Shown here: positions 22,244-53,251 of the stretch, piece by piece
How positions within the stretch are numbered: position 1 is the first letter of the stretch
Layout of the letters: every line of letters starts with the position of its first letter
Virus record (IMG/VR): IMGVR_UViG_3300032213_003338
Location: 58,609 to 122,608 of that record
DNA length: 64,000 bases
Direction: 5' to 3' (one strand)
Source of the DNA: a virus
Notes under the pieces: model-generated
What the model was told of the DNA's origin: nothing
The model's database searches: none
The model's input: only the letters and a program-made list of their open reading frames with translations
Position numbers and translations under genes: made by a program

Positions 22244-23238
22244 ATATTCAGTATTTAAGAGCGTCTTCAATAAAAACCTACGAAGGATGCCAGTTTCAGT
22301 TTTTCCTTGATTCAATACTTGAAATACCAAGCGGCTCTGGTAAAAAGGCTCTTCTTGGTACGATTGTGCATCACGTACTTGAAATAATGGCAAAGGCCAC
22401 AAAACTTGGCCACAAAGATGGCCCTCTGCTTGATCACGTGTTTTTGCTAGATGTATGCTGGAAGCGATACAAGGCAGAAAACGCCGGAAGAATTGAGTTG
22501 GCTGATGGTGCTGACAAAAGGTTTTGCCTTAAGTCTATTGAAAAGGTTCTTGGCACAAAGTACGACCCAAGAAATCTAAAGGTTCTGCACACAGAGCGTC
22601 AATTCAGAATTCCTCTAACAATGCCAGGTTTTACTTTTGAGTATTACGATGTGCTTAGCAAAAAAACCACTTCTGGAAACTACGAGATTCGAGGAACAAT
22701 CGACCTAATAACTAAGGTTGACGACGACACACTAGAGATAGTTGACTGGAAGACTGGATCAAGAAAATCATGGGAAACAGGAGAGCTTAAAGAATATGAT
22801 TATTTTGCAAGCAAGGATATACAGCTGCGAATGTATGATTTGGCTGTATCAATGTTGTACCCGCAGTACAAGACTAGGCTGCTTACAATACACTTTGTAA
22901 ATGATGGTGGGCCTTTTACCGTATGCTTTGATGATGACCAAAGAAAAGAAACTTTGTCAATTATTAAAGAGCATTTTAATACGATAAAGGGAAATCATTT
23001 ACCAACCAGAATTAAAGAGGTTAATGGTTCGCAGGCATGGAAATGCAAGACAACATGCCATTTTGGAAAGACAAAAACCTCAAACGGCTGCAGCGTATGT
23101 GATAATGTTTTTAACTACCTTGTGGCTAATGGAATTGATAAAACTATACTGAGAGTCGGAGAGGTTCGCAAAACAAAGGCTGAAGAAAAAGCGCTTAAGA
23201 CATCCGATAGACGAAACACTTTTAAAGACGACCAATGA
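22240..23238 (+). CDS. Cas4/RecB-like PD-(D/E)XK exonuclease with cysteine cluster
   Basis: This 332-residue nuclease has the RecB-family motifs: LRASSIKTYEGCQFQFFL, GTIVHHVLE (His), RGTIDLI (Asp), LEIVDWKTG (D-x-K) and QLRMYDLA (Q-x3-Y). Cys17 in the first motif plus three or four cysteines near 270-287 (CKTTC, GCSVC) match the Fe-S cluster layout of Cas4 and AddB. It probably resects or trims DNA ends in replication or recombination. It overlaps the polymerase gene by ATGA. Confidence 0.8.
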   Translation: MNIQYLRASSIKTYEGCQFQFFLDSILEIPSGSGKKALLGTIVHHVLEIMAKATKLGHKDGPLLDHVFLLDVCWKRYKAENAGRIELADGADKRFCLKSIEKVLGTKYDPRNLKVLHTERQFRIPLTMPGFTFEYYDVLSKKTTSGNYEIRGTIDLITKVDDDTLEIVDWKTGSRKSWETGELKEYDYFASKDIQLRMYDLAVSMLYPQYKTRLLTIHFVNDGGPFTVCFDDDQRKETLSIIKEHFNTIKGNHLPTRIKEVNGSQAWKCKTTCHFGKTKTSNGCSVCDNVFNYLVANGIDKTILRVGEVRKTKAEEKALKTSDRRNTFKDDQ

Positions 23239-25118
23239 GTTATATTCCTGTTCATGTACACACCGCGTGGTCACTTCTAGATAGCGTTGTAACAATTGAC
23301 TCTCTTGTGGCAAAGAGCAAGGAGTATGGCATTCCAGCACTATGCATGACGGACCATAACAACATTAAGGGTGTTGTTCCATTCTTCAAAGAATGCAAGT
23401 CATTCGGAATAAAACCAATAATTGGCGTTGAGCTAGACACTTATAATGGTGAAAATTTTGTAGGGAGAATAACACTTCTTGCAAAAAATAAAGTAGGTTA
23501 TAAGAATATAGTTAAGCTTGTTTCTATGGCTCGCACAAAAGAAGCCCTTTCTTTTAATGGAATGCCTAGAACACAAGTAGAGTCACTGTATCCATATAAA
23601 GCTGGTCTTATCTGTCTCGTTGGCGATCTTAAAAGCCAAATTTATTCAAGCGCTTTTGTAAACCACGAAATGGCTTACTCAAGCGACTCTGTTGAAGAGT
23701 GCGAAACACTCCTGCACAAAGACTGGAAGTCTCGCATTGAAAAAGTGCTAGATAACTATAAGAAGATATACGAAAACGTATTTTTATTTTATGATGTCAG
23801 TCTTCTGCCAGCCCATCTTGTCCTTGGCAAAAGAATAAGCGAGACTTTTGAAGATGCGCTGCCTTCGCATAATATTCACTATCTTAATAAAGAAGATCTG
23901 GAGCTTCACGAGCTTTTAACAAAGGCAAAGGAAGATGGCGGGTCTTGCTGCGAGGCAATGAACGATTCTCGCATATTTGACAAGCGATGGTCTCGTGGAT
24001 ATCTGTCAAAGGATATTAAGCGAGGAGAAAAAACACTAAAGCTTTTAGATCTTATTGAAGACTACTCAATTCAAGAGCGCCCAATTCTTGCAAGCTTTAA
24101 AATTGGAGATCACAAAATAGTTGATCCACATGAGCATCTGCGCGGACTTTGCAGATCTGGTTTTAAATCAACTGGTCTACTTGAAGAGTTTAAGCAAGAC
24201 CCATCTCTTAAAGAAGCTTATGTAAAAAGAATACAACACGAACTTGAGGTATTCAAGCAAGCAGGAATGTCTGCCTATTTTCTCATTGTTCATGATATTA
24301 TAAATAGCTTGCGATCAAAAGGTGTTCCAGCTGATATCAGAGGTTCCTCTTCTGGATGCATGATATCTTACCTTATAGGAATTTCTTCCGTTGATCCAAT
24401 GCGTCCAGATCCGACACTTGGTTATGATCCAGGAAGAGAGCTTCCATTCGAAAGATTTTACAATGAAGGTAGAAACACAAAAGATAACGTATCTTTACCA
24501 GATATCGATATGGACGTACCACCGTCTTTTAGAGAACTGCTTATTGAATACATTAGCGAAAAATATGGAAATGACTGTGTTGGCCACATTATTACTCACT
24601 CAAGATTTAAAGGCAGGGGTGCAATAAAAGAGGTTTTTAAACTACTAAAGCCAACGCCTGATTATTTTGATGTATCAAACCAAATTACTAAAAAATTTGC
24701 TGAAGAGGCAAAGATCTCAGACGATCTTGTAGAAATGCAGAAAGAAGACCCATCTTACGGAATTATCCGATGGAACATAGACAATATTAAATCAATTGCT
24801 GAATATTACGAGCAGTTCAAGGAGGCCTTTGACTATGCTTTAAGAATAGAAGAAGTGCCTAGAAATGAGAGCGTACACGCCGCTGGAATTATTATTGCAG
24901 ATCAGCCGCTAAGCAATCTTTTTCCAATGGTATATTCGGAAAAGCTTGACTCAATGGTAATTGATATTGAAGGTGCTGATATAGAATATCTTGGTGGTGT
25001 TAAGTTTGATATACTTGGCGTCACAGCCCTAGAGAAAGTTTTTCAAATACAGCGTATGGTAAACTTTAAACTTAATGAAATTGAATTTGGGGAGTTTTCT
25101 TACTCCTACTATGATTAA
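23235..25118 (+). CDS. dnaE: DNA polymerase III alpha (DnaE), N-terminal half: PHP and palm
   Basis: These 627 residues are the first half of a DnaE-type replicative polymerase. The PHP domain has HVHTAWSLLD and MTDHNN. RGSSSGCMISYLIG is the nucleotide-binding motif of the palm. LPDIDMD (two catalytic Asp) and GGVKFDILG (third catalytic Asp), with RNESVHAAGIIIA between them, complete the palm. The protein stops soon after the third Asp, before fingers, HhH and OB domains. Those are encoded separately at 34417-35961. No intein sequence is visible at the end (GEFSYSYYD). The stop abuts a late promoter box. Confidence 0.92.
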   Translation: MSYIPVHVHTAWSLLDSVVTIDSLVAKSKEYGIPALCMTDHNNIKGVVPFFKECKSFGIKPIIGVELDTYNGENFVGRITLLAKNKVGYKNIVKLVSMARTKEALSFNGMPRTQVESLYPYKAGLICLVGDLKSQIYSSAFVNHEMAYSSDSVEECETLLHKDWKSRIEKVLDNYKKIYENVFLFYDVSLLPAHLVLGKRISETFEDALPSHNIHYLNKEDLELHELLTKAKEDGGSCCEAMNDSRIFDKRWSRGYLSKDIKRGEKTLKLLDLIEDYSIQERPILASFKIGDHKIVDPHEHLRGLCRSGFKSTGLLEEFKQDPSLKEAYVKRIQHELEVFKQAGMSAYFLIVHDIINSLRSKGVPADIRGSSSGCMISYLIGISSVDPMRPDPTLGYDPGRELPFERFYNEGRNTKDNVSLPDIDMDVPPSFRELLIEYISEKYGNDCVGHIITHSRFKGRGAIKEVFKLLKPTPDYFDVSNQITKKFAEEAKISDDLVEMQKEDPSYGIIRWNIDNIKSIAEYYEQFKEAFDYALRIEEVPRNESVHAAGIIIADQPLSNLFPMVYSEKLDSMVIDIEGADIEYLGGVKFDILGVTALEKVFQIQRMVNFKLNEIEFGEFSYSYYD

Positions 25119-25129
25119 GTGTATATATA
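25119..25129 (+). promoter_or_regulatory. Late-type promoter box upstream of a small RNA candidate
   Basis: GTGTATATATA directly follows the polymerase TAA. The next start codon is 106 nt away and a terminator lies between, so the likely product is a short RNA. Confidence 0.55.
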
Positions 25130-25132
25130 GGT

Positions 25133-25214
25133 GATTACGCTATTCGGGCATCTTAGGCCCGTCTGAGTTACGCGTAGTTGCCCATCAGTTCGTAACTGTT
25201 CTGATGGGCTTTTT
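25133..25214 (+). ncRNA. Candidate small structured RNA, about 80 nt
   Basis: Transcription from the box at 25119 should begin near 25133 and stop at the T-run at 25210-25214. The segment contains TACGC (25136-25140) that can pair with GCGTA (25172-25176), enclosing a CGGGC/GCCCG hairpin (25145-25161), and then the terminator hairpin. An alternative pairing GTTACG (25167-25172) with CGTAAC (25191-25196) would compete with both helices, so a switch is conceivable. I do not recognise a known RNA family, and it is not a tRNA. Confidence 0.4.
25180..25214 (+). terminator. Rho-independent terminator
   Basis: GCCCATCAG (25180-25188), 12-nt loop, CTGATGGGC (25201-25209), then TTTTT. The 9-bp stem is perfect. 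It ends the polymerase transcript and the small RNA candidate. Confidence 0.85.
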
Positions 25215-25224
25215 AAGGAATATT

Positions 25225-25422
25225 ATGGACGATATAGACATGCGCGATATGGACCCAAGGCTTGCAAAGGCTATGATAATATTTGGTCTTAAGTTTGCCG
25301 AATACACTAAAGAGATGGACTACGAGCTTTGGAGCAGAGCCATAGATTACGCGAAGACATTTACAAAGGTTGACGGGGTTGAGATTAACTGTGACCCTAG
25401 AGAAAACAATGAATTTCAATAA
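25225..25422 (+). CDS. Small hypothetical protein
   Basis: This 65-residue acidic protein starts MDDIDMRDMDPRLAKAMIIF and includes AEYTKEMDYELWSRA. AAGGA six bases before ATG 25225 supports this start over an in-frame ATG at 25204 inside the terminator stem. No known family. It is the first gene after the terminator. Confidence 0.5.
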   Translation: MDDIDMRDMDPRLAKAMIIFGLKFAEYTKEMDYELWSRAIDYAKTFTKVDGVEINCDPRENNEFQ

Positions 25423-25615
25423 CTTTGGAAGCGTAAAAGCTTCTCATAAAGTCCGTGGGATTGAGATAATTGAAAGAGAATACAGTATAGAACTTAAAGC
25501 TGAAAGCGGTTCAGTTTTTTTATCATCCCTAGAAGAAATAAATAATGTTATTGATGTTTTAAAGTACGCAAAGCTTGCACATCATAAGAAGAAATTTTTT
25601 ACACTGCTTGATTAG
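25409..25615 (+). CDS. Small hypothetical protein
   Basis: This 68-residue protein starts MNFNNFGSVKASHKVRG. It is mixed alpha/beta with a basic end (YAKLAHHKKKFFTLL). ATG 25409 overlaps the upstream gene by 14 bases. No family recognised. The stop abuts a late promoter. Confidence 0.5.
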   Translation: MNFNNFGSVKASHKVRGIEIIEREYSIELKAESGSVFLSSLEEINNVIDVLKYAKLAHHKKKFFTLLD

Positions 25616-25624
25616 TGTATAAAG
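25615..25624 (+). promoter_or_regulatory. Late-type promoter box, leaderless spacing
   Basis: GTGTATAAAG is 14 nt before ATG 25629, with no ribosome binding site. Confidence 0.65.
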
Positions 25625-25628
25625 TTTT

Positions 25629-26465
25629 ATGGACATAAAGCCGTTTATAATTAAAAATATTAATATTGCTGCAAGACGCAGCGATGTTAAGCTTGTTGAA
25701 GACTCGGAAATAAAGCCAGCAACAAGTCCAGACCTAAACCTTAACTATGAACCAGGCGAACCTGAAGATCAGGCGTTTATTGTTTTTCTATTCACTACTG
25801 TAACCAATTTGCTTGGGGTAGGGCGTGATCCATGTATAAAAAGAGTTATTGAATCCCCAGAGGGAAGAGAAATACTTAGAAGGATAAGAAGGACATTATC
25901 ACAATTAAAAAATATTGCAGACCCAAACGAGTTCAGAAGTAAATTCTTTGCTCTCAATTTTGCTGCTATTATACAAGAATCACAAAGAGAACTTAGAAAT
26001 AAGTTTCCATGCTGGAATGAAGACTACCTTGAAAATGCCATTAAGTCAATGAATGCATATGACAAGATTCATAATAAAGGCGTTTTTGATCAGTTTTTTA
26101 GTGTTGTAGTAAAAGTTATAACAAATGAAGAAGGTGTGGTTCTTGCTCCACTTTCTGGACCTGCTTTAAATATAAAAATTGCTGAAAAGCTAGTAGAGCT
26201 TTATCCAAATGATCCAAACTACGTTGGTCTTTTGGGATACGCAATAATTATTTCAGAAGCAGCTAACGCTGAAATAATGGCTTATCTTGATATGATTTTT
26301 AATATAACTGCTTTAATTACAGCGCTTGGTGCTGCAATGATTGCTTTTAATGGTGGTGTTGCCGCTGCCGCTTCTGCAATATACGCTATTGTTAGAGCTG
26401 CTGAAAATGGTATTGAGCTTATTCAAAAGCTTATACAACAGGGTCTTTTACCTTCAACTTCATAA
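25629..26465 (+). CDS. Late protein with basic N-terminal helix and hydrophobic C-terminus
   Basis: This 278-residue protein opens with MDIKPFIIKNINIAARRSD, similar to other late proteins here, then an acidic Pro-rich linker. The middle is helical with EGREILRRIRRTLSQLK. A hydrophobic stretch of about 35 residues near 220-255 (ALITALGAAMIAFNGG, then AAAASAIYAIV) could span a membrane. It pairs with the next gene, which has similar features. A virion-internal protein that inserts in the host membrane on DNA delivery is one reading, but unproven. Confidence 0.6.
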   Translation: MDIKPFIIKNINIAARRSDVKLVEDSEIKPATSPDLNLNYEPGEPEDQAFIVFLFTTVTNLLGVGRDPCIKRVIESPEGREILRRIRRTLSQLKNIADPNEFRSKFFALNFAAIIQESQRELRNKFPCWNEDYLENAIKSMNAYDKIHNKGVFDQFFSVVVKVITNEEGVVLAPLSGPALNIKIAEKLVELYPNDPNYVGLLGYAIIISEAANAEIMAYLDMIFNITALITALGAAMIAFNGGVAAAASAIYAIVRAAENGIELIQKLIQQGLLPSTS

Positions 26466-26469
26466 TCCT

Positions 26470-27276
26470 ATGAATAAAAAAGACGTAAAGCTTTTTAATT
26501 ACATAGCAAAAGTCGCAGCAAAAAGAGGCGATACTGTTTTAGCACCGGGCCAGACTCAAACATTTGAAGACATAGGTCCTGTTAGCGAACCAGCGGAAAA
26601 ACCAGACAAGGAAACCGAAATTGCCTGGGAAAAATGGATTACAGGGCTTTCGCTTGCCCCAATTCTAGTTTGGGCATTGAGATCTCTTTGGAAATATCTT
26701 GATCCGTTCTGCAAAAGAAGACTAGCTGGAGTTCTTGAGTCTTTAAGCGCAGCGATGAAGAAATTAAATGAAGCGGCTAGCCAAAATGAGTTTGCTGCGG
26801 CAGCAGAGGCTCTACGGCAAATATTTCAATCATTACCTAAAAACTGCAGAGATGGAGTTTTGGAAAATCCAGAGTTTGTTGCCGAGCTTAGAAGAATCTC
26901 AGACGGTATGGCTATAACCATTGAGGACTTGATTGGCAAATACATTATGCAAAAAAATCAGGACGACGCCCTGAGATGGCTAGTAAACTACGGAACCTCT
27001 GCGGCAACAGTAGCAGCCGTTTATCTTTGGGCTTTAAATCAGCCCGGCTCAAGTCCTAGTATTGCAGCAGAAATAGCAGCATGGGCAGAAACAAATAGAA
27101 CTGTGCTTTGGGTAATCGCGGGTGCTGCTGTGTTATTCGGTCTAGCTGCTGCACTTAGCGGCGTTGGCCTTCCAGCCGGCATTGCATCTGGAGCTACTGG
27201 AGTTATACTTATGGCCCTATTAGCTTGGCTAAATCAAGACCCCCCGCAAGATGATGGTGGCGGGATGGAAGCCTAA
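26470..27276 (+). CDS. Late protein with basic N-terminal helix and several hydrophobic segments
   Basis: This 268-residue protein starts MNKKDVKLFNYIAKVAAKRG and then has a linker with TVLAPGQTQTFEDIG. Hydrophobic segments are near 60-75 (weak), 175-190, 210-230 (VLWVIAGAAVLFGLAAAL) and 235-250. It ends in an acidic Gly tail. ATG 26470 is the first sensible start; the frame is open further upstream but reads out of context. It overlaps the convergent gene by 4 bases. Function unknown. Confidence 0.6.
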   Translation: MNKKDVKLFNYIAKVAAKRGDTVLAPGQTQTFEDIGPVSEPAEKPDKETEIAWEKWITGLSLAPILVWALRSLWKYLDPFCKRRLAGVLESLSAAMKKLNEAASQNEFAAAAEALRQIFQSLPKNCRDGVLENPEFVAELRRISDGMAITIEDLIGKYIMQKNQDDALRWLVNYGTSAATVAAVYLWALNQPGSSPSIAAEIAAWAETNRTVLWVIAGAAVLFGLAAALSGVGLPAGIASGATGVILMALLAWLNQDPPQDDGGGMEA

Positions 27277-27662
27277 ATAGAAGCTTCGTTTATTGCTTTA
27301 ATAAAAGAAGAAATTACTGAGCTGCTTGTGTACTGGGTTACAGACTTCTTAGCTTCCCACATCTTGCAGGACCAGTAGTTAGCCTTCCATTTTGGGCCAG
27401 GATTACTGCACCCGTGACGAGATCTGTAGTTTTTTCTTCGTTGCGGATCGTCACGCCGGATTTCCATATTAGGATCACCAAACATCACGCGAACAACATT
27501 GCCGCGATCATTCTTTACATAAACATAAAACTTCTTCTTGCCGTAACCTGGATCTCCCTTGCCTATTCGTCTTGGTTGATTTAGGGTAATCTTTTTACCC
27601 TGATACTCAACCGCTTGGGCTTTCTCTGAAGCAAAAATTACGTCAAGTTCCGAGTCGTTCAT
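27273..27662 (-). CDS. Conserved phage domain protein (DUF5872-like)
   Basis: 129 residues. The block VRVMFGDPNMEIRRDDP, then RRKNYRSRHGC, then GPKWKANYWSCKMW is a very common phage and virophage-type domain that I recall as DUF5872, often beside or fused to virion maturation proteins; its function is not established. The conserved Cys and His residues suggest a metal or disulfide site. The start overlaps the upstream gene by ATGA. Confidence 0.7.
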   Translation of the reverse strand: MNDSELDVIFASEKAQAVEYQGKKITLNQPRRIGKGDPGYGKKKFYVYVKNDRGNVVRVMFGDPNMEIRRDDPQRRKNYRSRHGCSNPGPKWKANYWSCKMWEAKKSVTQYTSSSVISSFIKAINEASI

Positions 27663-27895
27663 AACTTCTCCAGACCCTCAACACTCTCCGTTATGTTCCA
27701 GCCAGTGTTGCGAGGAAACTCAGGATTCATTATTTTAATGGTTGCAATTCCTGAGTTAATCTCTAAAACCTCGCCCCAGACGCCAAAGTTAACTGAGTCC
27801 TTGTTTACGCAGCTAACTATGTCGCCCTCGGAAATGCTAGCCACTTGTGGCTGCTGTGGCGGTGTGTAAGAATATTCGTTTTCTTCTTCGTTCAT
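27659..27895 (-). CDS. Small KOW/SH3-like protein
   Basis: This 78-residue protein has a disordered acidic N-terminus and then ISEGDIVSCVNKDSVNFGVW and GEVLEINSGIATIKIM, the barrel pattern of KOW/SH3-like domains. A similar pattern is seen in the next gene upstream (27892-28173). Function unknown; it overlaps both neighbours. Confidence 0.5.
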   Translation of the reverse strand: MNEEENEYSYTPPQQPQVASISEGDIVSCVNKDSVNFGVWGEVLEINSGIATIKIMNPEFPRNTGWNITESVEGLEKL

Positions 27896-28173
27896 GATAT
27901 TTTCTCCAATTGATCTTCTGTTTTTGTTAGTACTTTACCTGGGCTATAAGAAGGTCCATCGTTCTCAACCGTATAATGAATAAGATAACCACTATTTTCT
28001 GGAAGTGTTTCTATCATTGTAACAGTGCCAATGCTGCCGTAGTGCATGCACTGCTGGTTTATGTCCTTGACCTTATCACCAACCTTTATCCCCTTATAAG
28101 AAATCACTTCGGTTCCAACAGCAACCTGTAGATTCTTAAGAGCTTTTCTAATTTTACTGTTTACGATGCTCAT
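27892..28173 (-). CDS. Small late protein with basic N-terminal helix and KOW-like domain
   Basis: 93 residues: MSIVNSKIRKALKNLQVAVG (basic helix resembling other late proteins here) followed by a KOW/SH3-like barrel (IKVGDKVKDINQQC, YGSIGTVTMIETL). The late promoter box is 14 nt before the ATG and there is no ribosome binding site. First gene of a three-gene unit. Confidence 0.55.
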   Translation of the reverse strand: MSIVNSKIRKALKNLQVAVGTEVISYKGIKVGDKVKDINQQCMHYGSIGTVTMIETLPENSGYLIHYTVENDGPSYSPGKVLTKTEDQLEKIS

Positions 28174-28176
28174 AAA

Positions 28177-28187
28177 TAAATATACAC
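28177..28187 (-). promoter_or_regulatory. Late-type promoter box, leaderless spacing
   Basis: On the minus strand GTGTATATTTA, 14 nt before ATG 28173. Confidence 0.65.
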
Positions 28188-28191
28188 ATTA

Positions 28192-28848
28192 TTACGGATC
28201 TTCTTCAGTCTCAGTCGCTGGCGGAACTAGGCTTATTGGGTTTGCTGATATAATTCCCGTTATTATTCCTGGGTAGGAAATGGAATTAAATAAGGCGATG
28301 TCTTCTGCGTAATACCCCTCCAAAACGGCTGTCTGCTCGGCTGTAAGGGTTGGCTTTGGATAAGATGCTGCATTTATTTGAGGAAGCGGTAGTATAAAAC
28401 CGATCTCTGCAGAGGCCTCATTTATATGTTCTGGAAATTTATAAAGTTTGGTATTAACATCGACCCACAGTATTTGAGGTTTAAAATGTAGATTAATACT
28501 AGCATTTATTTCTCTAGCTTTCACTGTTCCAGATACAAATTTTGATCCGTTGATTAATGAGTCAATTACAGCGTTAACATCAACAGTGTGGAATTGCGCC
28601 ATTGCCGATCGAAATCTTTCTAGCGGATTTCTTATCATTGCAAGTATTGGTTTTGATGGATACTTTTCTCTTTTCACAAAACCTTGCCACATTGAGTTGT
28701 CTGAATTTTTACCAACAGGATATGAGGCAGTTGTTATAAGCAACTCCTCCTCTGTTTGAAAAGCTTTAATTACAGCACGAGAAATCGTTGAACAACCAGA
28801 TTTTGGTATAAATGCTACGCTATAGTTGGGTGTTATAAAATAAGTCAT
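28192..28848 (-). CDS. Sulfotransferase-family protein
   Basis: 218 residues. AFIPKSGCSTISRAV (12-26) matches the 5'-phosphosulfate loop of PAPS-dependent carbohydrate sulfotransferases, and IRNPLERFRSA (72-82) matches their 3'-phosphate motif (R-x-P-x-x-R-x-x-S). The enzyme would move sulfate from PAPS to a sugar or protein; no acceptor is evident. It is last in the operon after the tail fibre and the LRR protein. Phage sulfotransferases are uncommon. The C-terminus (PPATETEEDP) is disordered. Confidence 0.65.
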   Translation of the reverse strand: MTYFITPNYSVAFIPKSGCSTISRAVIKAFQTEEELLITTASYPVGKNSDNSMWQGFVKREKYPSKPILAMIRNPLERFRSAMAQFHTVDVNAVIDSLINGSKFVSGTVKAREINASINLHFKPQILWVDVNTKLYKFPEHINEASAEIGFILPLPQINAASYPKPTLTAEQTAVLEGYYAEDIALFNSISYPGIITGIISANPISLVPPATETEEDP

Positions 28849-29753
28849 TATGGTGCTATGTTAAGTACTGTGTACCCCTTATTAGTTGCAATCAAAATGT
28901 CAGATGCGGTTAAAGATGCTGCGCCTATCGTACCAGAAACATCAAGATAGCCATTTCCGTTTGCAAGATCATTAAAAAATTGAACTATTGCCGTTCTATC
29001 TAAATTTGAACCATCAAATTCGGCACCTCCAGAAAAATTATTATAGTCAGAATAGTATAAAAGATTTAGCGCGCAGTTTTGCGCTCTAATCGAAGTTATT
29101 GCACTGCTCTTAGTATCAATGTGGTATAACGCTAAGAAGTTGGAAAGATCTATAGATGTAAACGATGTACAGGTTGACAATTCAAATTCTTGTAATGTGT
29201 TTTTTACATTATCTAGGCCGTTTAAAGTAGTAAGGGTTGTACTGCCAGATATTGAAATGATCCTAGCTAAGCTTCCAGGTGGAATTGAAATAGATGTAAG
29301 TGAAATGTTACTAAGATATAAATATTTTATTCTTCCATTGTGTGTGTACGACGTTAAATTAGCTCCTGCATCACAGGCAAAAGTCTCAAGTTTAGATAAA
29401 CCAAGAACATCAACATAACTTATTGGCGAATAACTGTTGTTGCCAAAAGAAATACTGCTTAATTGGCCAATCTGAACACCAGATGAGTTTGTTGGTATAA
29501 TTGAAAATCTTTTTTCATCTGTTGTATTATATGGGGCAGAAATAGCCTTTGATGCGCTTGAGACACCAAAGCCAGGATTATAAAGATTGGATGTTCCATC
29601 CCACCAATTAACTTTAAACCATCCAGTGTAAGAACCTACTTGAAATGAACCAATTGCTCCAAATGTACCAGATGATCTCTTTGTGCCGAACTCTGCTATT
29701 TCTGCTCTTGGATTATATGTTAACCGGGGCGCTGCGCTTGGTATTACAATCAT
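28848..29753 (-). CDS. Leucine-rich-repeat-like tail protein
   Basis: This 301-residue protein has an N-terminal beta part (YTGWFKVNWWDGTSNLYNPG) that could be a fibre-type domain. From about residue 115 it carries irregular LRR-like units (LSKLETFACD, IKYLYLSNISLTSISIP, LTTLNGLDN, LQEFELSTCTSFTSIDLSN, ALYHIDTKSSAITSI). It is sandwiched between the fibre and the sulfotransferase with 1-4 base overlaps, so it may be a receptor-binding or fibre-tip component. Confidence 0.6.
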   Translation of the reverse strand: MIVIPSAAPRLTYNPRAEIAEFGTKRSSGTFGAIGSFQVGSYTGWFKVNWWDGTSNLYNPGFGVSSASKAISAPYNTTDEKRFSIIPTNSSGVQIGQLSSISFGNNSYSPISYVDVLGLSKLETFACDAGANLTSYTHNGRIKYLYLSNISLTSISIPPGSLARIISISGSTTLTTLNGLDNVKNTLQEFELSTCTSFTSIDLSNFLALYHIDTKSSAITSIRAQNCALNLLYYSDYNNFSGGAEFDGSNLDRTAIVQFFNDLANGNGYLDVSGTIGAASLTASDILIATNKGYTVLNIAP

Positions 29754-31864
29754 ATTCCGAGTGTTCCTGCTAAATTATAGACATTGCTAGCATAGCATAG
29801 TACGCTTGCAGATCCGTGCTGTCCTAGTATTTTGTTTCCAGATGCGTAGCAGTTGACTGTCGCTCCAGATAAGCCAGTACAGGTAACCTGTCCAGTTCCA
29901 AGTTGAATTATTGTGGCATTAAATCCAATATCTAGGCCAGTTGGTATTCTTAGCGTGTGTGTGGCGGCGCTATCAAATGTTATTATTCTGCCGTTGTCCG
30001 AAGCCTGAAGAGTGTATCCGGTTGCGGTTTGCGCGTTTATTGCGTTTGATGTTATTCGGTAGCCGCTTGCAGCTAGCATGTGTCCAGTTGACTGAACGCT
30101 TGACCAACCAATAACAGACCCTGTTGCTCTAACATCAACGCTTGTTAGTATTGACTGAGCTATTGCTCTTAGTGGGCCAGAATCAAGAATAACTCCGCTT
30201 GAATTAGACCCTTTAAGGATAAGCCCACCTAGAGTGTTTCCGATTGTTATTTGGCTATTACCAAAAGTTCCGTTTGTTCCAATATTTATTATCTTGTGGC
30301 CACCAAAAATTGAGTTTGTTCCAATATCTATAAACCCAGTACTGCTACCAACGGTTGTGTCTAGTTGCAGACCACCGATTGTTATTCCTGTCGCGTTTGG
30401 TCCTATTACGTTTGTTCTACCGTTTATTGTTACCGTGCCGGTAGACGCTATGCTTGGACCTATCGTTATGTTTGTTGTCGCTGAGCCAACAGAAGCACCA
30501 GTGCCGATGTTTATTGTCTTTGTTACACCAGCCCCGTTTGCGCCAGCGCCAATGTTTATTACACTGTTTGATGTAACGCCACCGATTGTTATACCTGTTG
30601 CGACACCGCACATCGTTAGAGATGTGGCGGTTGCGTCAAATACTGATACTGTCGTTGAAGTTGTACTTATCGTTCCGTCATTAACTGCAAGATCACCAAC
30701 AACTACGACACCTGTCGCATTACCTATTAATACACCACTGGCAGACGCGCCTATATTAACCCTTGAAACGTTTGTGTTAAAGACGCTTGCTGTACCAACA
30801 AGCGGGGTTATTATGTCTGGAGTTCCTAGAGTAAGCGTTCCAGAAGCCAAAATGTTGTTTGGAACATCGTTTGTTCTACCTGGACCAAGTACTATGATTT
30901 GCCCATTGCTTACGTTAGATCTTGCGACGCGACCAATGTTCTGTACCAAAATACTTGCGCCAGTCGGCCTGATATTTGTTACCCATCCAGTTGAGTTAAC
31001 GAAAACGCTGTTACCAACAGTAAACGCTGATGTATCAGTGTCATTTAAAACGCCAACGACGACAACGTAACCAGTTGCGTTTACGGCCAAAGACTGGGCA
31101 CACAACCCAACCGCTGGCATTTTTGCAGTGGTATCAGCACGAGCAAGCTGAATTTCAATAACATCACTAGCCCCAACGTTTCCTGATATGAAAACTGGAT
31201 CACCTTTACGTAGCGTTACTGAGTCTGTGTTTTTACATGCTTTTAAAACAGCGCCGTCCATGTCACCTGTAATGTGGTCTACAGTTAGCGCCTTTGTGAT
31301 CGTTACGTTTCCAGGAAAAGTGGTTGTCGTATTTCCATGACCTATACGTACAGCATGTGGTGTTGGGTAAAGGTATCCTGTCGAAGCGGTAAGTGTATCA
31401 ATAGTAACAGCGAGAGATCCAGTAGGCTCAATCGCAACATTGTTTGACTGTGTTCTAAAAATTAAATCACCAGAGTCGTTTCCGGCGATCTCTGAGTATG
31501 TATTGTTGTAGCTTCTACCTGTTATCCAATGACTCCACGAGGTCGTCGGGTCTTCTGACGCAAAAAGATTAAGTGCCCCTATATTAACGCTTGAGACACC
31601 GCTTACATGTATCGATCCACTAACGTAAATATCCGGATCAAGACCTATTGTTGTCGATCCAGTTGCTTGCGTAACGTAAATACCGCTTGTTGAGCCGGAT
31701 ACAGCGGTAACGCCCTGGTTTGTGATTTCTACTGGATTTCCTGATGCGTTACCAACAAAAAGTTTTTTGTCTGTTATGTTTACCGCAAGCTCTCCCTGCA
31801 GCAAAGAACCGCTAGCTGGCGTGGATGTGGAAGTTGTGGAGTTTTTTGTCTTTATTCTTGCCAT
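29750..31864 (-). CDS. Tail fibre protein with beta-helical repeats
   Basis: 704 residues. The N-terminus (LLQGELAVNITDKKLFVGN) is the common phage fibre segment of form GELAxNxxDxKLY. The middle holds many short repeats of type xxIGxG (INIGAGANGAG, INIGTGASVGS, ITIGPSIAS, IDIGTNSIFG, INIGTNGTFG), as in trimeric beta-helix fibres. The C-terminus (QLGTGQVTCTGLSGATVN... LAGTLGI) is a typical fibre-tip fold. It likely binds the host surface. A late promoter lies 16 nt before ATG; it heads the fibre/LRR/sulfotransferase operon. Confidence 0.82.
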   Translation of the reverse strand: MARIKTKNSTTSTSTPASGSLLQGELAVNITDKKLFVGNASGNPVEITNQGVTAVSGSTSGIYVTQATGSTTIGLDPDIYVSGSIHVSGVSSVNIGALNLFASEDPTTSWSHWITGRSYNNTYSEIAGNDSGDLIFRTQSNNVAIEPTGSLAVTIDTLTASTGYLYPTPHAVRIGHGNTTTTFPGNVTITKALTVDHITGDMDGAVLKACKNTDSVTLRKGDPVFISGNVGASDVIEIQLARADTTAKMPAVGLCAQSLAVNATGYVVVVGVLNDTDTSAFTVGNSVFVNSTGWVTNIRPTGASILVQNIGRVARSNVSNGQIIVLGPGRTNDVPNNILASGTLTLGTPDIITPLVGTASVFNTNVSRVNIGASASGVLIGNATGVVVVGDLAVNDGTISTTSTTVSVFDATATSLTMCGVATGITIGGVTSNSVINIGAGANGAGVTKTINIGTGASVGSATTNITIGPSIASTGTVTINGRTNVIGPNATGITIGGLQLDTTVGSSTGFIDIGTNSIFGGHKIINIGTNGTFGNSQITIGNTLGGLILKGSNSSGVILDSGPLRAIAQSILTSVDVRATGSVIGWSSVQSTGHMLAASGYRITSNAINAQTATGYTLQASDNGRIITFDSAATHTLRIPTGLDIGFNATIIQLGTGQVTCTGLSGATVNCYASGNKILGQHGSASVLCYASNVYNLAGTLGI

Positions 31865-33774: not shown

Positions 33775-34413
33775 ATGAACAAGCGAAATTTCGTTGTTTA
33801 CGATATTGAAACTACAGGCCTAGATTATGAAAATGGCGCCGAAATAGTTCAGATAGCGGCAATAACACTGAATTATTCAGATTATGAAATATCAAAAACG
33901 ATTCCTGAATTTTGCATCACTGTACAACCACAAAGTCCTGAAAAGGCTGACGCAAAAGCAATACAAGTAATTGGACAAGATCTTTGGTCAAAAGCGCAGT
34001 CAGAGGGCATGCATCCAAAGACAGCCCTTAGAAAATTTAAAGAATATCTTTCGATATCAAACCCCTCGGAAAATCCATGGGAATATCCAATAATTGTAGG
34101 ATACAATAACTGTAATTTTGATGACAAGTTTGTTGAGTACTGGATGCGCAAATACAAGATAATTAATGGAAAAAACGACTGCCCCTGGTCAAACATAAAG
34201 CTCGACATGATGCCCATGATGTTTTCTATTTTTGGCAGGGATAATCTTAAAAATAACAGGCTAGACACTTACGCCGGTTTACTTGGTATGAAAAGGACAT
34301 CTAGTACTCACGATGCTCTTGAGGACGTGAAGATTACTGCGGAAATGTTTAAGCGGTATATGTCATTTATGAACTTTAAGATCAGACCTAAGATCAAGAT
34401 AACAGCTGGGTAA
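33775..34413 (+). CDS. DnaQ-like proofreading exonuclease
   Basis: This 212-residue DEDDh 3'-5' exonuclease shows Exo I as VVYDIETTG (Asp10, Glu12), Exo II as GYNNCNFDDKF (Asp116), and Exo III as STHDALEDV (His179, Asp184). It lies 3 bases before the C-terminal half of DnaE, so it very likely acts as the proofreading (epsilon) subunit of the split polymerase. No ribosome binding site is obvious. A -10-like TACAAT is 11 nt before the ATG. Confidence 0.88.
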   Translation: MNKRNFVVYDIETTGLDYENGAEIVQIAAITLNYSDYEISKTIPEFCITVQPQSPEKADAKAIQVIGQDLWSKAQSEGMHPKTALRKFKEYLSISNPSENPWEYPIIVGYNNCNFDDKFVEYWMRKYKIINGKNDCPWSNIKLDMMPMMFSIFGRDNLKNNRLDTYAGLLGMKRTSSTHDALEDVKITAEMFKRYMSFMNFKIRPKIKITAG

Positions 34414-34416
34414 AGT

Positions 34417-35961
34417 ATGTTCAACATCGAAGAAGTAAATTTTAAAAACGATAAAACGTGGCGCCTAATTCAAAGCGGAAACACCGGTGGTGTCTTTCAG
34501 CTAGAAAGCGAACTTGGAAAACAATGGGCGGCTAAGATAAAGCCAAAAAACATTAACGAGCTTAGCGCCGTTCTAGCTCTTATTAGACCAGCATGTCTTG
34601 AATCTGGAATGACAGAAAAATACGCAAGAGTAAAGAACGGTCTAGATGTCGCGCACAAGTTTGGAGACGAGGACGTTGATCGTATTCTACAGCCAACAAG
34701 CGGTGTTCTTATTTATCAAGAACAGCTAATGAAGTTTGGTGGGGAAATTGCCTGGAGAGAAATGCCGTATATTGATCGCCTTGTTATTGTTGACAAGCTG
34801 AGAAAAGGCATTGGCAAAAAGGACTACAAGGTAATTAGCGAACTAAGAGAAAAGTTCGTGTCTGGATGTGTAAAAAACGGCAAAACAAAAGACTTGGCAG
34901 AGCAGCTTTTTTCAATGATTGAAAGCGCTGGAAGATATGCTTTTAACGATGCGCACGCAAAGAAATACGCTGTTTGGTCTTACAGAACAGCGTATATGAA
35001 AGCAAACTTTCCATATGAGTTTTATTGCACGTATTTAACATATTCAAAGGCTAGACAAAGATCCAGAGAAGAGCTTCATGATATGATCAATGAAGCAAAG
35101 CTTTGCGGTATAGAAATAATTCCACCGACAATTACAGACTCGTCAAAAGATTTTAAAATTGTCAGTGATAATAAATCAAAGAGCATCATATTTGGACTAA
35201 GTCACATAAAACAATTTGGTGAAAAAGACTGGGAGACAATAAATAATAACAGGCCCAAGTATTTTTCTGACTTCCTAAATTTAGCATACAGGGAGAAAGA
35301 CTCTCTGCGTTCTCTTGGTGTAGAATCTCTCATAAAGAGCGGCGCATGTGACATATACGGAATTGGAAGAAAAACAATGCTTGATGTAGTTAGCGCCATG
35401 AATGAACTAACTCCGAGAGAAATTAAATATGTTGTTGAGGAGATTTGTAAAAATGGGCCAAATAATTCAGTAGCTCTAGTAAAAGAAAAGATGATTGAGT
35501 GCTCCGATGCTATTAGCACCAAAAAGAGAAAGCCAATAGTTAAATCTGAGGCTGATGCCATAGACGAAAACGCAAAGGATACAACTGATTGGAAGTCTTC
35601 TAGTGAGCAAGAACTTTTGTCTATTGCAATGACCTGCAGCGCAGTGGATGAGTACAAAGATGTATGTGATTTTACATGCAAAGATTGCCATAGAATGCTT
35701 AGGAACAATAAAGGTGTTACGAAAAGAGTTATTGCCTCTATTGTAGATACAACATTTACAGTAACAAAAAAGGGTGAAAACCCAGGCCAAGAAATGTGTC
35801 AAATAAATATTACCGATGCAAGTGGCAGCATCAGAGTCGTTGTTTTTCCAAATTCTTACGCAAAACATAAAGCAAAAATTAGAAAGGATGGCAAATATGA
35901 ATTTACAATAAAGGGGACTGGTAGTGGATGGTCCGTAGAGTCTTTAACAGAAATAACGTAA
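34417..35961 (+). CDS. dnaE: DNA polymerase III alpha (DnaE), C-terminal half: fingers, HhH, OB
   Basis: These 514 residues continue DnaE where the 23235-25118 gene ends. They begin just before GNTGGVFQLES (fingers) and include ALIRPACLESG, SGVLIYQEQLMKFGGE, and SAGRYAFNDAHAKKYA (the SGYxFNKSHAxAYA motif). A helix-hairpin-helix region (LRSLGVESLIKSGACD) follows. An OB domain (ASIVDTTFTVTKKG, INITDASGSIRVVVF) ends the protein. No catalytic Asp of the palm is present, so it cannot act alone. Together the halves total 1141 residues, near normal DnaE size. Confidence 0.92.
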   Translation: MFNIEEVNFKNDKTWRLIQSGNTGGVFQLESELGKQWAAKIKPKNINELSAVLALIRPACLESGMTEKYARVKNGLDVAHKFGDEDVDRILQPTSGVLIYQEQLMKFGGEIAWREMPYIDRLVIVDKLRKGIGKKDYKVISELREKFVSGCVKNGKTKDLAEQLFSMIESAGRYAFNDAHAKKYAVWSYRTAYMKANFPYEFYCTYLTYSKARQRSREELHDMINEAKLCGIEIIPPTITDSSKDFKIVSDNKSKSIIFGLSHIKQFGEKDWETINNNRPKYFSDFLNLAYREKDSLRSLGVESLIKSGACDIYGIGRKTMLDVVSAMNELTPREIKYVVEEICKNGPNNSVALVKEKMIECSDAISTKKRKPIVKSEADAIDENAKDTTDWKSSSEQELLSIAMTCSAVDEYKDVCDFTCKDCHRMLRNNKGVTKRVIASIVDTTFTVTKKGENPGQEMCQINITDASGSIRVVVFPNSYAKHKAKIRKDGKYEFTIKGTGSGWSVESLTEIT

Positions 35962-50817: not shown

Positions 50818-52400
50818 TATAAAGTACCGCCTTCTCCTGGGGTCAATATAGTTGCATTAAAAGAATAGTTTCCTTTAAATATATCAAGAGACTCACTAAA
50901 AGAAGTAACCCAAAAGCTTGATCCTTGGGTTCCAGTCGGATAGACATCTATTGCGCTTAAAACTGTTTTTGCATTACTTCTATAGGTATCGATGGTTTCA
51001 AAGTCAGCTTTAAGGCCAGTTCCTATGACAAAATTTGCTGAAATATTTCTCTTTGTTGTGTTCGTTGTTCTTATATCCTGAATAACTGGACCTGTTGTCC
51101 TTCCTGGTACTGGAATTTCTGCAACAAAATTTTCCTTTGTATTTTGGCTTACATTAACATCAAAATCTATAAAATTTGTGGATGTTAAGTCAATAGGCTT
51201 TTCTTTAAATTCTGCTTCATAATTTACAGTTGCAGAACGTCTATTTTCAGAAATAGTCATTCCATATGGGCCGTAAATATATGAAGATCCTGTTATGTAC
51301 GGGTTTGTTAAAGATCCAGTTTCTGTTATTCTTGTTTTTAGTATTCCAAAATTATTTGCAGCTATTATATTTGTAAAGTAATCTTTTGCTTTTTTGTGTC
51401 CAGTTGGTCCTGGAGCAAAACCTTTTATTGCGCCAGAAACTCTAAAAGATTTATCGTAACCATGGGTGTTGCTTATTGCGTTGGGGCCGCTGGCTCTAGA
51501 AGTCATTGATATGTTAAAATCATCTTGAACTCCACTTGTGGTTGTTTTGATAAACTTCCATGTCTGTTGTACAGAATAAGATCCGCCGTATTGGTCTGAC
51601 TGTTCAGACGTTTGATGTCCAACGTATTCGTATCCTGACTTTGGAGCATATAAACTGTAAATAGTTATTGGATTAACTAATCCAGTTTCTGCCACCTTTT
51701 TTTCAACCCAGTTTCTTGCCTTTATGTATGGATTATAATTTCCAGTTGCTGCATATTCTGTGGCAAACGCTTTATAGCTTTGTGCTGAGACCGTTCTTGT
51801 AACCGAGTAAGAATTTTCAAAATCATTATCGGAAGATACAGTTACAGAGTCGGATGCCGATTTTAAATTAAATCCAGAAAATTCTGACTGTGAAAAAGTT
51901 GGATTTACTGGCGTGTATCCGTCAATAAGTATTTCATTTGTAAGTATTGTTATTGTGTAATCTGTTTTTACAACGTGAATAGCGTCTGCAAATGAAATGT
52001 TAGAAATTTGCGGCTTACATTTAAGCACGCTTGTTGTTCCGTCATCTGTCTTTATCTCTAACAAATACTCTGTTGCTACTTTAGTTGTCGCAGATCCAGT
52101 ATTTGGTTCGCCTGGATTAATTGTAAAAAGATCACGAAGCGCTCTTTGCTTTTTAAGAAGAGAGCCAAATTTTTTGTCATCAGTATTAATAGCTGGATCT
52201 ACGGCCTCAGCAGTTGCCAAACTTGTAAAAAATTGACCCGTGGGGCCTGGTGATCCACGATCAGGAAGCAGCGTTCCATTTAACGTGAGTTCAAACTGAG
52301 AAGATAGAACTGTACCATCAGTGGTTCTGACGTAATTCTCAGATAGACTGTAAAGCGGTGCTGGGCTAATATATTTGCCGTTATATAATACTATTGCCAT
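50817..52400 (-). CDS. Tail structural protein
   Basis: This 527-residue beta-rich protein starts MAIVLYNGKYISPAPLYSLS, with SSQFELTLNGTLLPDRGS and, near the end, RNISANFVIGTGLKADF. GAGGAAAC precedes ATG. It is between the fibre-like gene and the hub, and is probably a baseplate or distal tail component. No catalytic motif. Family not recognised. Confidence 0.6.
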   Translation of the reverse strand: MAIVLYNGKYISPAPLYSLSENYVRTTDGTVLSSQFELTLNGTLLPDRGSPGPTGQFFTSLATAEAVDPAINTDDKKFGSLLKKQRALRDLFTINPGEPNTGSATTKVATEYLLEIKTDDGTTSVLKCKPQISNISFADAIHVVKTDYTITILTNEILIDGYTPVNPTFSQSEFSGFNLKSASDSVTVSSDNDFENSYSVTRTVSAQSYKAFATEYAATGNYNPYIKARNWVEKKVAETGLVNPITIYSLYAPKSGYEYVGHQTSEQSDQYGGSYSVQQTWKFIKTTTSGVQDDFNISMTSRASGPNAISNTHGYDKSFRVSGAIKGFAPGPTGHKKAKDYFTNIIAANNFGILKTRITETGSLTNPYITGSSYIYGPYGMTISENRRSATVNYEAEFKEKPIDLTSTNFIDFDVNVSQNTKENFVAEIPVPGRTTGPVIQDIRTTNTTKRNISANFVIGTGLKADFETIDTYRSNAKTVLSAIDVYPTGTQGSSFWVTSFSESLDIFKGNYSFNATILTPGEGGTL

Positions 52401-52411
52401 GTTTCCTCAAA

Positions 52412-53251
52412 TCAATATGTGCCGCCATCAATTATAGAATCAAGTGGTCCAGCACTTGAAGATGCAATTGAAGAAGCTATCCTATTTCCGTACCAAGTAA
52501 CGCCATAATCAAAACTATAAAACTCAAATCCGTCAATTTGTGTTCCAGTCGCAGTAACTGGAGAATTTAATCTTGGCTTAGAGTAACCGCTAGCCCATTG
52601 CTCGCGTGGCCAAATAATAGACGCATTAAAATCAACCTCTCTGTTACCAGCAGTATCCTGAACGGTAAATAAAGTTACCCTATAATCGCGCATGTACGTT
52701 GATGGAAGACCCGTCGTTCCGCTTGCGTCTTGATCTTGAAAAGGTGATTTTGCAATTGATATTTGAGTTAGCGGCTGATTAAGAGTGACTTTTTGCGTAG
52801 TTCCGCTAGCTGGATAAACCACAAATACTCCAGTTGATGTTGATCCAGTTGCGCTTACCTGATAACCACCAAATGAAAAACTTTCGATGGCCATATTTCT
52901 AATTGTTCCGTTTTGTAACAATCCAGAACCGGCCATGCTAATAATACCGCCATTAAATGTTATGTCTCTGTTAGAACCAGCAACTATTGCCTTATTTGAC
53001 TCAACATCCCCATCAGAGCCAGCCCTGTCAATTTTATTAATTTCTAAAGCTGTCGCTGTGAGCCTGGTTCCGCTTATTAGTAATACGCCATTTATGTCAA
53101 CTCCAGTTGTGCATATTCTAAGGGCAGAGTCAGTTCCATTTCCACCAGCAACCGCCAGAAGAGTTGTGGGCATGCCGTTGTTCGAATTAGATATTTGTAA
53201 AATATCTTTATATGTCTGGCTTGGCGTTTGTCCTAAAAATGAAGTTCCCAT
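52412..53251 (-). CDS. Tail-fibre or attachment structural protein
   Basis: 279 residues. The N-terminus (GQTPSQTYKDILQISNSNNG) and the next segment (GNGTDSALRICTTGVDING) match a repeated module I recall from phage fibre and baseplate-wedge proteins (TYKDLLQxxNxxxG...SALxLS). The C-terminal half is beta-rich (FEFYSFDYGVTWYGNRI). The late promoter is 14 nt before ATG. It may attach fibres to the tail tip. Confidence 0.6.
   Translation of the reverse strand: MGTSFLGQTPSQTYKDILQISNSNNGMPTTLLAVAGGNGTDSALRICTTGVDINGVLLISGTRLTATALEINKIDRAGSDGDVESNKAIVAGSNRDITFNGGIISMAGSGLLQNGTIRNMAIESFSFGGYQVSATGSTSTGVFVVYPASGTTQKVTLNQPLTQISIAKSPFQDQDASGTTGLPSTYMRDYRVTLFTVQDTAGNREVDFNASIIWPREQWASGYSKPRLNSPVTATGTQIDGFEFYSFDYGVTWYGNRIASSIASSSAGPLDSIIDGGTY

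What the first reader, a model, noticed from the sequence alone, without database searches (positions are those of the whole stretch)
25119..25214. Late-expressed small structured RNA with its own terminator
A late promoter box is placed before, not after, a strong terminator, leaving an about 80-nt transcript with a two-helix fold and an alternative pairing (25167-25172 with 25191-25196) that could act as a switch. No reading frame fits in it.
Basis: partly seen in the sequence, partly recalled or inferred. Interest (0 to 1): 0.6.

Follow-up and report, generated by a model that had tools for sequence, protein, structure and literature searches.

The report
Late-promoter small RNA of a phage
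Right behind the gene for half of its DNA polymerase, this bacterial virus carries what looks like a stand-alone gene for an 82-letter non-coding RNA with its own switch-on and stop signals; the RNA is kept almost letter for letter in related viruses whose protein genes have drifted far apart, so it very probably does a job, but which job is not known.

Summary
GTGTAT is this phage family's promoter box: 48% of its copies in the genome are followed within 30 nt by an ATG reading frame, against at most 22% for 59 permuted motifs, and over seven genomes the ATG lies exactly 14 nt from the first G in 43 of 132 cases. At 25119 the box is followed by no gene. The same ruler puts the RNA start at 25133, the first base of the first helix; an intrinsic terminator ends it near 25214 (about 82 nt). 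Against a relative whose four-fold degenerate codon sites are 44% identical, 58 bases (25130-25187) are unchanged; the next longest identical stretch in 5.4 kb is 23. The fold is the same in all three distinct sequences found. No Rfam match; an exact core search of GTDB species genomes found nothing; absent from more distant phage relatives. The proposed switch pairing is lost in that relative, so the switch is not supported. Best reading: a new, lineage-restricted phage small RNA gene, probably acting in trans; target unknown, no expression data. In passing: DNA polymerase III alpha is split into two genes.

The parts
23235..25118 (+). dnaE-N: N-terminal half (PHP + palm) of DNA polymerase III alpha, immediately upstream of the RNA gene
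   Evidence: Pfam PF02811 and PF07733, no finger domain; the rest of the polymerase is the ORF 34417-35961
25119..25125 (+). Promoter box GTGTATA of the phage's late-type class
   Evidence: Motif statistics over 7-8 related genomes; conserved in all 8 contigs with the RNA
25133..25214 (+). Predicted 82-nt small RNA; 5' end inferred from the 14-nt box-to-start ruler, 3' end from the U tract
   Evidence: 58-nt exact identity 25130-25187 with L007
25133..25179 (+). Hairpin 1 (invariant module): P1 25133-25140/25172-25179, P2 25142-25149/25161-25168, 11-nt loop 25150-25160
   Evidence: Same MFE fold in all three distinct sequences; 100% identity with L007; insertions in L005 fall between helices in the structure-guided alignment
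25180..25214 (+). Intrinsic terminator, GCCCATCAG...CTGATGGGC plus TTTTT
   Evidence: drifts in sequence but keeps pairing, with one two-sided change (GC to UA) among 3 distinct sequences
25225..25422 (+). Gene A, 65 aa, unknown function; its ribosome-binding site abuts the terminator U tract; found only in the contigs that carry the RNA

Best explanation
A stand-alone small RNA gene of a phage. The phage's late-type promoter (GTGTAT, plausibly read with the phage's own sigma factor) starts transcription at about 25133, the first base of helix P1, and the intrinsic terminator ends it at about 25214, releasing an 82-nt RNA folded over its whole length into two adjacent hairpins. The terminator hairpin is generic (it drifts while keeping its pairing); the 47-nt first hairpin, nearly unchanged across relatives, is the working part. 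It most likely acts in trans during the later phase of infection by binding a partner (a host or phage mRNA through its 11-nt loop, or a protein). Shown by computation: promoter motif, terminator, fold, strong selection on the sequence, independence from one particular downstream gene. Inferred: that it is transcribed, the exact ends, the timing, the action in trans. Unknown: the partner. The claim that this is a real non-coding RNA gene stands at about 0.85; that it acts in trans as described, at the figure given below.
For: GTGTAT precedes ATG frames far more often than permuted motifs, with a sharp 14-nt peak (43 of 132) that places the RNA start exactly on the first base of P1. Sigma factor in the genome. 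Fold z -4.9 and the same fold in three distinct sequences. 58-nt exact identity with L007 where four-fold sites are 44% identical and the next longest run is 23; null 99th percentile 37, largest of 2000 shuffles 56. Gene-less promoter-terminator pair essentially unique per genome. In L002-L004 a methyltransferase-like gene sits between terminator and gene A, yet the RNA is unchanged. No Rfam family.
Against: No expression data. Only three distinct sequences, so the base pairs of hairpin 1 never vary and covariation is uninformative. No shared phage target found. Gene A is present in all eight contigs and has no promoter box of its own, which would also suit a cis-acting leader.
Confidence: 0.62

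Rival explanations
1. Cis-acting attenuator: the RNA is the leader of gene A (or whatever gene follows), and read-through of the terminator is regulated by a ligand, a protein or translation.
For: The ribosome-binding site of the next gene abuts the U tract in all variants; genes A and B have no GTGTATA box of their own; gene A is present wherever the RNA is.
Against: No conserved antiterminator pairing: the candidate 25167-25172/25191-25196 is lost in L007 and the terminator shares no bases with P1. In L002-L004 an unrelated methyltransferase-like gene follows the RNA instead of gene A.
Confidence: 0.2
2. No RNA function: a promoter and a terminator that separate the replication operon from the late module, the hairpin being incidental.
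For: The site lies at the border between dnaE-N and inserted genes; related phages without the RNA have late genes or dnaQ there.
Against: The strongest conservation lies in the transcribed hairpin, not in the terminator or in flanking genes.
Confidence: 0.08
3. A leaderless 11-codon peptide (GTG at 25131, VITLFGHLRPV) is the product.
For: Many mRNAs of this phage appear leaderless and the frame is open in all three variants.
Against: The GTG lies 12 nt from the box where the peak is 14; synonymous positions are as fixed as the others, and the one change in L005 alters the amino acid.
Confidence: 0.04
4. Cis-acting processive antitermination RNA, working like the put RNAs of phage HK022: hairpin 1 modifies the polymerase so that it passes the terminator.
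For: Two adjacent hairpins, extreme sequence conservation, a terminator immediately downstream, genes beyond it without their own box. put is recalled from general knowledge only; a paper search gave nothing.
Against: No sequence link to put was tested; the terminator would have little purpose if always overridden.
Confidence: 0.05

Closest known systems
OOP RNA of phage lambda (PMC12197685)
   Same: A 77-nt phage RNA with its own promoter that works as a regulatory RNA in phage development.
   Different: OOP is antisense to cII; no substantial gene is encoded opposite the RNA described here, and no sequence relation is known.
PreS (LPR1) of phage lambda (PMC12197685)
   Same: An about 88-nt phage-encoded RNA that acts in trans during infection.
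   Different: PreS depends on Hfq and targets host dnaN; here host, chaperone and target are unknown, and the RNA has a late-type promoter behind a replication gene.
Small stable RNAs C and D of phage T4 (from general knowledge; the paper search found nothing)
   Same: Short phage RNAs of unknown function.
   Different: They lie in the T4 tRNA cluster; no relation was tested. No tRNA lies in the window.

Membership tests
Phage-encoded trans-acting small RNA (functional class) | Own promoter | tested here: met
   GTGTAT box with motif statistics
Phage-encoded trans-acting small RNA (functional class) | Intrinsic terminator, 50-250 nt transcript without a gene | tested here: met
Phage-encoded trans-acting small RNA (functional class) | Conserved beyond its surroundings | tested here: met
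Phage-encoded trans-acting small RNA (functional class) | Expressed as a discrete RNA | not testable with these tools
   No transcriptome of this phage
Phage-encoded trans-acting small RNA (functional class) | Target base-pairing or protein partner | tested here: inconclusive
   Scan of translation starts in three genomes gave no shared target and little or no excess over shuffles; host unknown
Any Rfam 15 family | Score above the gathering threshold | tested here: not met
   No match in the window; best sub-threshold matches 12.9 bits against 75 (MicX) and 14.3 against 81 (mir-1277)
Riboswitch or attenuator | Conserved, mutually exclusive terminator and antiterminator pairings | tested here: not met
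   Named pairing lost in L007; CGGGC bistability lost in L005
Type III toxin-antitoxin | Tandem repeated antitoxin RNA followed by a terminator and a toxin gene | tested here: not met
   Single non-repeated hairpin; next gene is 65 aa without a Pfam match, or a methyltransferase-like gene
tRNA or tmRNA | Cloverleaf recognised by ARAGORN or Rfam | tested here: not met

The most novel reading that the evidence does not exclude
Hairpin 1 is a new kind of late phage RNA that works by binding a protein (for example the host polymerase, an RNA-binding regulator or a defence factor) rather than by pairing with an mRNA: both strands of its helices, including the G-U pairs, are fixed as well as the loop, which is more than a short antisense seed would require.
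Probability: 0.25. Interest if true: 0.65.

Novelty: new member of a known kind. Interest (0 to 1): 0.42.

Why it matters
Small RNAs controlled by a phage's own late-type promoter are rarely described; the examples listed in a 2025 review come mostly from prophages and lambda-like phages (PMC12197685). This one is delimited nearly to the base by comparative evidence in an uncultured phage group, so its ends, fold and invariant module can be tested directly. The same data define the promoter class and suggest leaderless late mRNAs for the group.

Tried and rejected
T4-type late promoter TATAAATA: 17 copies, no pattern. Rfam at permissive thresholds: chance matches only. An exact 18-base core in 84,980 bacterial and archaeal species genomes: none. 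Covariance model over 20 related records: only the eight known contigs; a ninth match (21.8 bits, G003:33890-33941) spans only 52 nt and was taken as chance. A second box followed by a terminator (record position 27447, also in G003 and G007) lies at the end of a short reading frame and is not counted. Base-pairing targets in the phage: nothing shared. Covariation: uninformative with three distinct sequences. A tRNA-like reading of CGGGC-AUCUUAG-GCCCG (anticodon-arm-like) was considered and dropped: ARAGORN and Rfam see no tRNA. Programmed bypass or trans-splicing joining the two dnaE halves was considered because the RNA sits at the split; dropped because more distant relatives have the same split without the RNA.

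Full report
Setting. The window is positions 58609-122608 of a 122,608-base virus record, a bacteriophage with terminase- and portal-like, RecA, DnaB, primase, ribonucleotide reductase and tRNA genes. The element follows the stop codon of a 627-aa protein that carries only the PHP and palm parts of DNA polymerase III alpha.

Promoter. GTGTATA occurs 19 times in the record against 9.1 expected, 13 of them shortly before an ATG frame. In the same genome 28 of 58 GTGTAT sites (48%) are followed by an ATG frame within 11-30 nt; of the other permutations of the motif the best, an overlapping one, reaches 22% and the rest stay below 15%. Across seven related genomes 43 of 132 listed promoter-gene pairs have the ATG exactly 14 nt from the first G. 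That spacing suggests leaderless mRNAs that begin at or very near the ATG; a second group at 22-30 nt often shows a ribosome-binding site. At 25119 the ruler points to 25133, which is the first base of helix P1. The phage encodes a sigma-70 family factor (L025 12313-12867) that may read this box. That these are late promoters is inferred from the genes behind them (for example a tail-fibre-like gene at 53251 and genes next to the portal and terminase genes); orthologous genes are counted once per genome, so the 132 pairs are not all independent.

RNA. The 82 nt from 25133 to 25214 fold with no free end except the U tract: P1 (8 bp), a 1x3 internal loop, P2 (8 bp), an 11-nt loop, then the terminator. 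The same fold is the minimum for L005 and L007; in the structure-guided alignment the insertions in L005 fall between helices. The fold beats all 200 shuffles (z -4.9).

Conservation. L007 is the most informative relative: DnaE-N is 76% identical, four-fold degenerate sites 44%. Bases 25130-25187 are identical without a break; the next longest run in 5.4 kb is 23, and codon-pattern shuffles give a median of 23, a 99th percentile of 37 and a maximum of 56 in 2000. The shuffles include the element itself, which makes the test conservative. The terminator loop differs freely while its stem keeps pairing. The selected part is therefore the first hairpin, not the terminator.

Range. Exact core searches and a covariance model find the RNA only in eight contigs of one lineage, the window included; relatives at 55-62% identity in DnaE-N lack it at this place and elsewhere in the records held, some of which are fragments. 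There the dnaE-N gene is followed by dnaQ, by a homologue-like small gene or by late genes. The RNA together with gene A thus looks like a later insertion at this junction. In three of the eight contigs a methyltransferase-like gene has entered between terminator and gene A, leaving the RNA intact.

Switch. The named pairing GUUACG/CGUAAC is present in the window, broken in L007 (loop CUUAAA) and interrupted in L005. A second alternative, CGGGC with GCCCG instead of GUCUG, is even with the main fold in the window and L007 (P 0.505) but nearly absent in L005 (0.044). Neither passes as a conserved switch.

Function. A trans-acting RNA is the simplest account: own promoter, own terminator, no dependence on one downstream gene, selection on a compact hairpin. 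A leader that controls read-through into gene A is the main rival, since gene A has no box of its own. No target was found in the phage and the host is unknown.

Filing. It is a new member of a known kind, phage-encoded small RNA; no described family matches. The closest described examples are taken from a review (PMC12197685).

Noticed in passing
23235-25118 and 34417-35961: DNA polymerase III alpha is split into two genes at the palm/fingers border (N: PHP + palm; C: fingers, HhH, OB), with a dnaQ-like exonuclease 33775-34413 before the C half. All 12 related records searched have the fingers part in a separate frame of about 510-530 aa; in L037 the order N-dnaQ-C is contiguous, in the window about 8.7 kb of other genes lie between N and dnaQ. 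No intein or splicing signal was seen.
   Followed up: partly
L025:12313-12867 (record 52313-52867): Sigma-70 family factor with regions 2 and 4, a candidate reader of the GTGTAT promoters.
   Followed up: partly
GTGTAT sites genome-wide, e.g. window 25615, 28187, 31880, 46252, 53265: Sharp 14-nt spacing between promoter box and ATG suggests leaderless late mRNAs in this phage group.
   Followed up: yes
L024 (record about 23,000-31,000): An island of 53-63% GC in a 40% GC genome, with a tRNA-Arg and hairpin-terminator sequences, one of which is also found in G003 and G007.
   Followed up: no
L002 6990-7865 (also L003, L004): Methyltransferase-like gene inserted exactly between the RNA's terminator and gene A.
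   Followed up: partly
25225-25422: Gene A (65 aa, no family) is found only in contigs that carry the RNA.
   Followed up: partly
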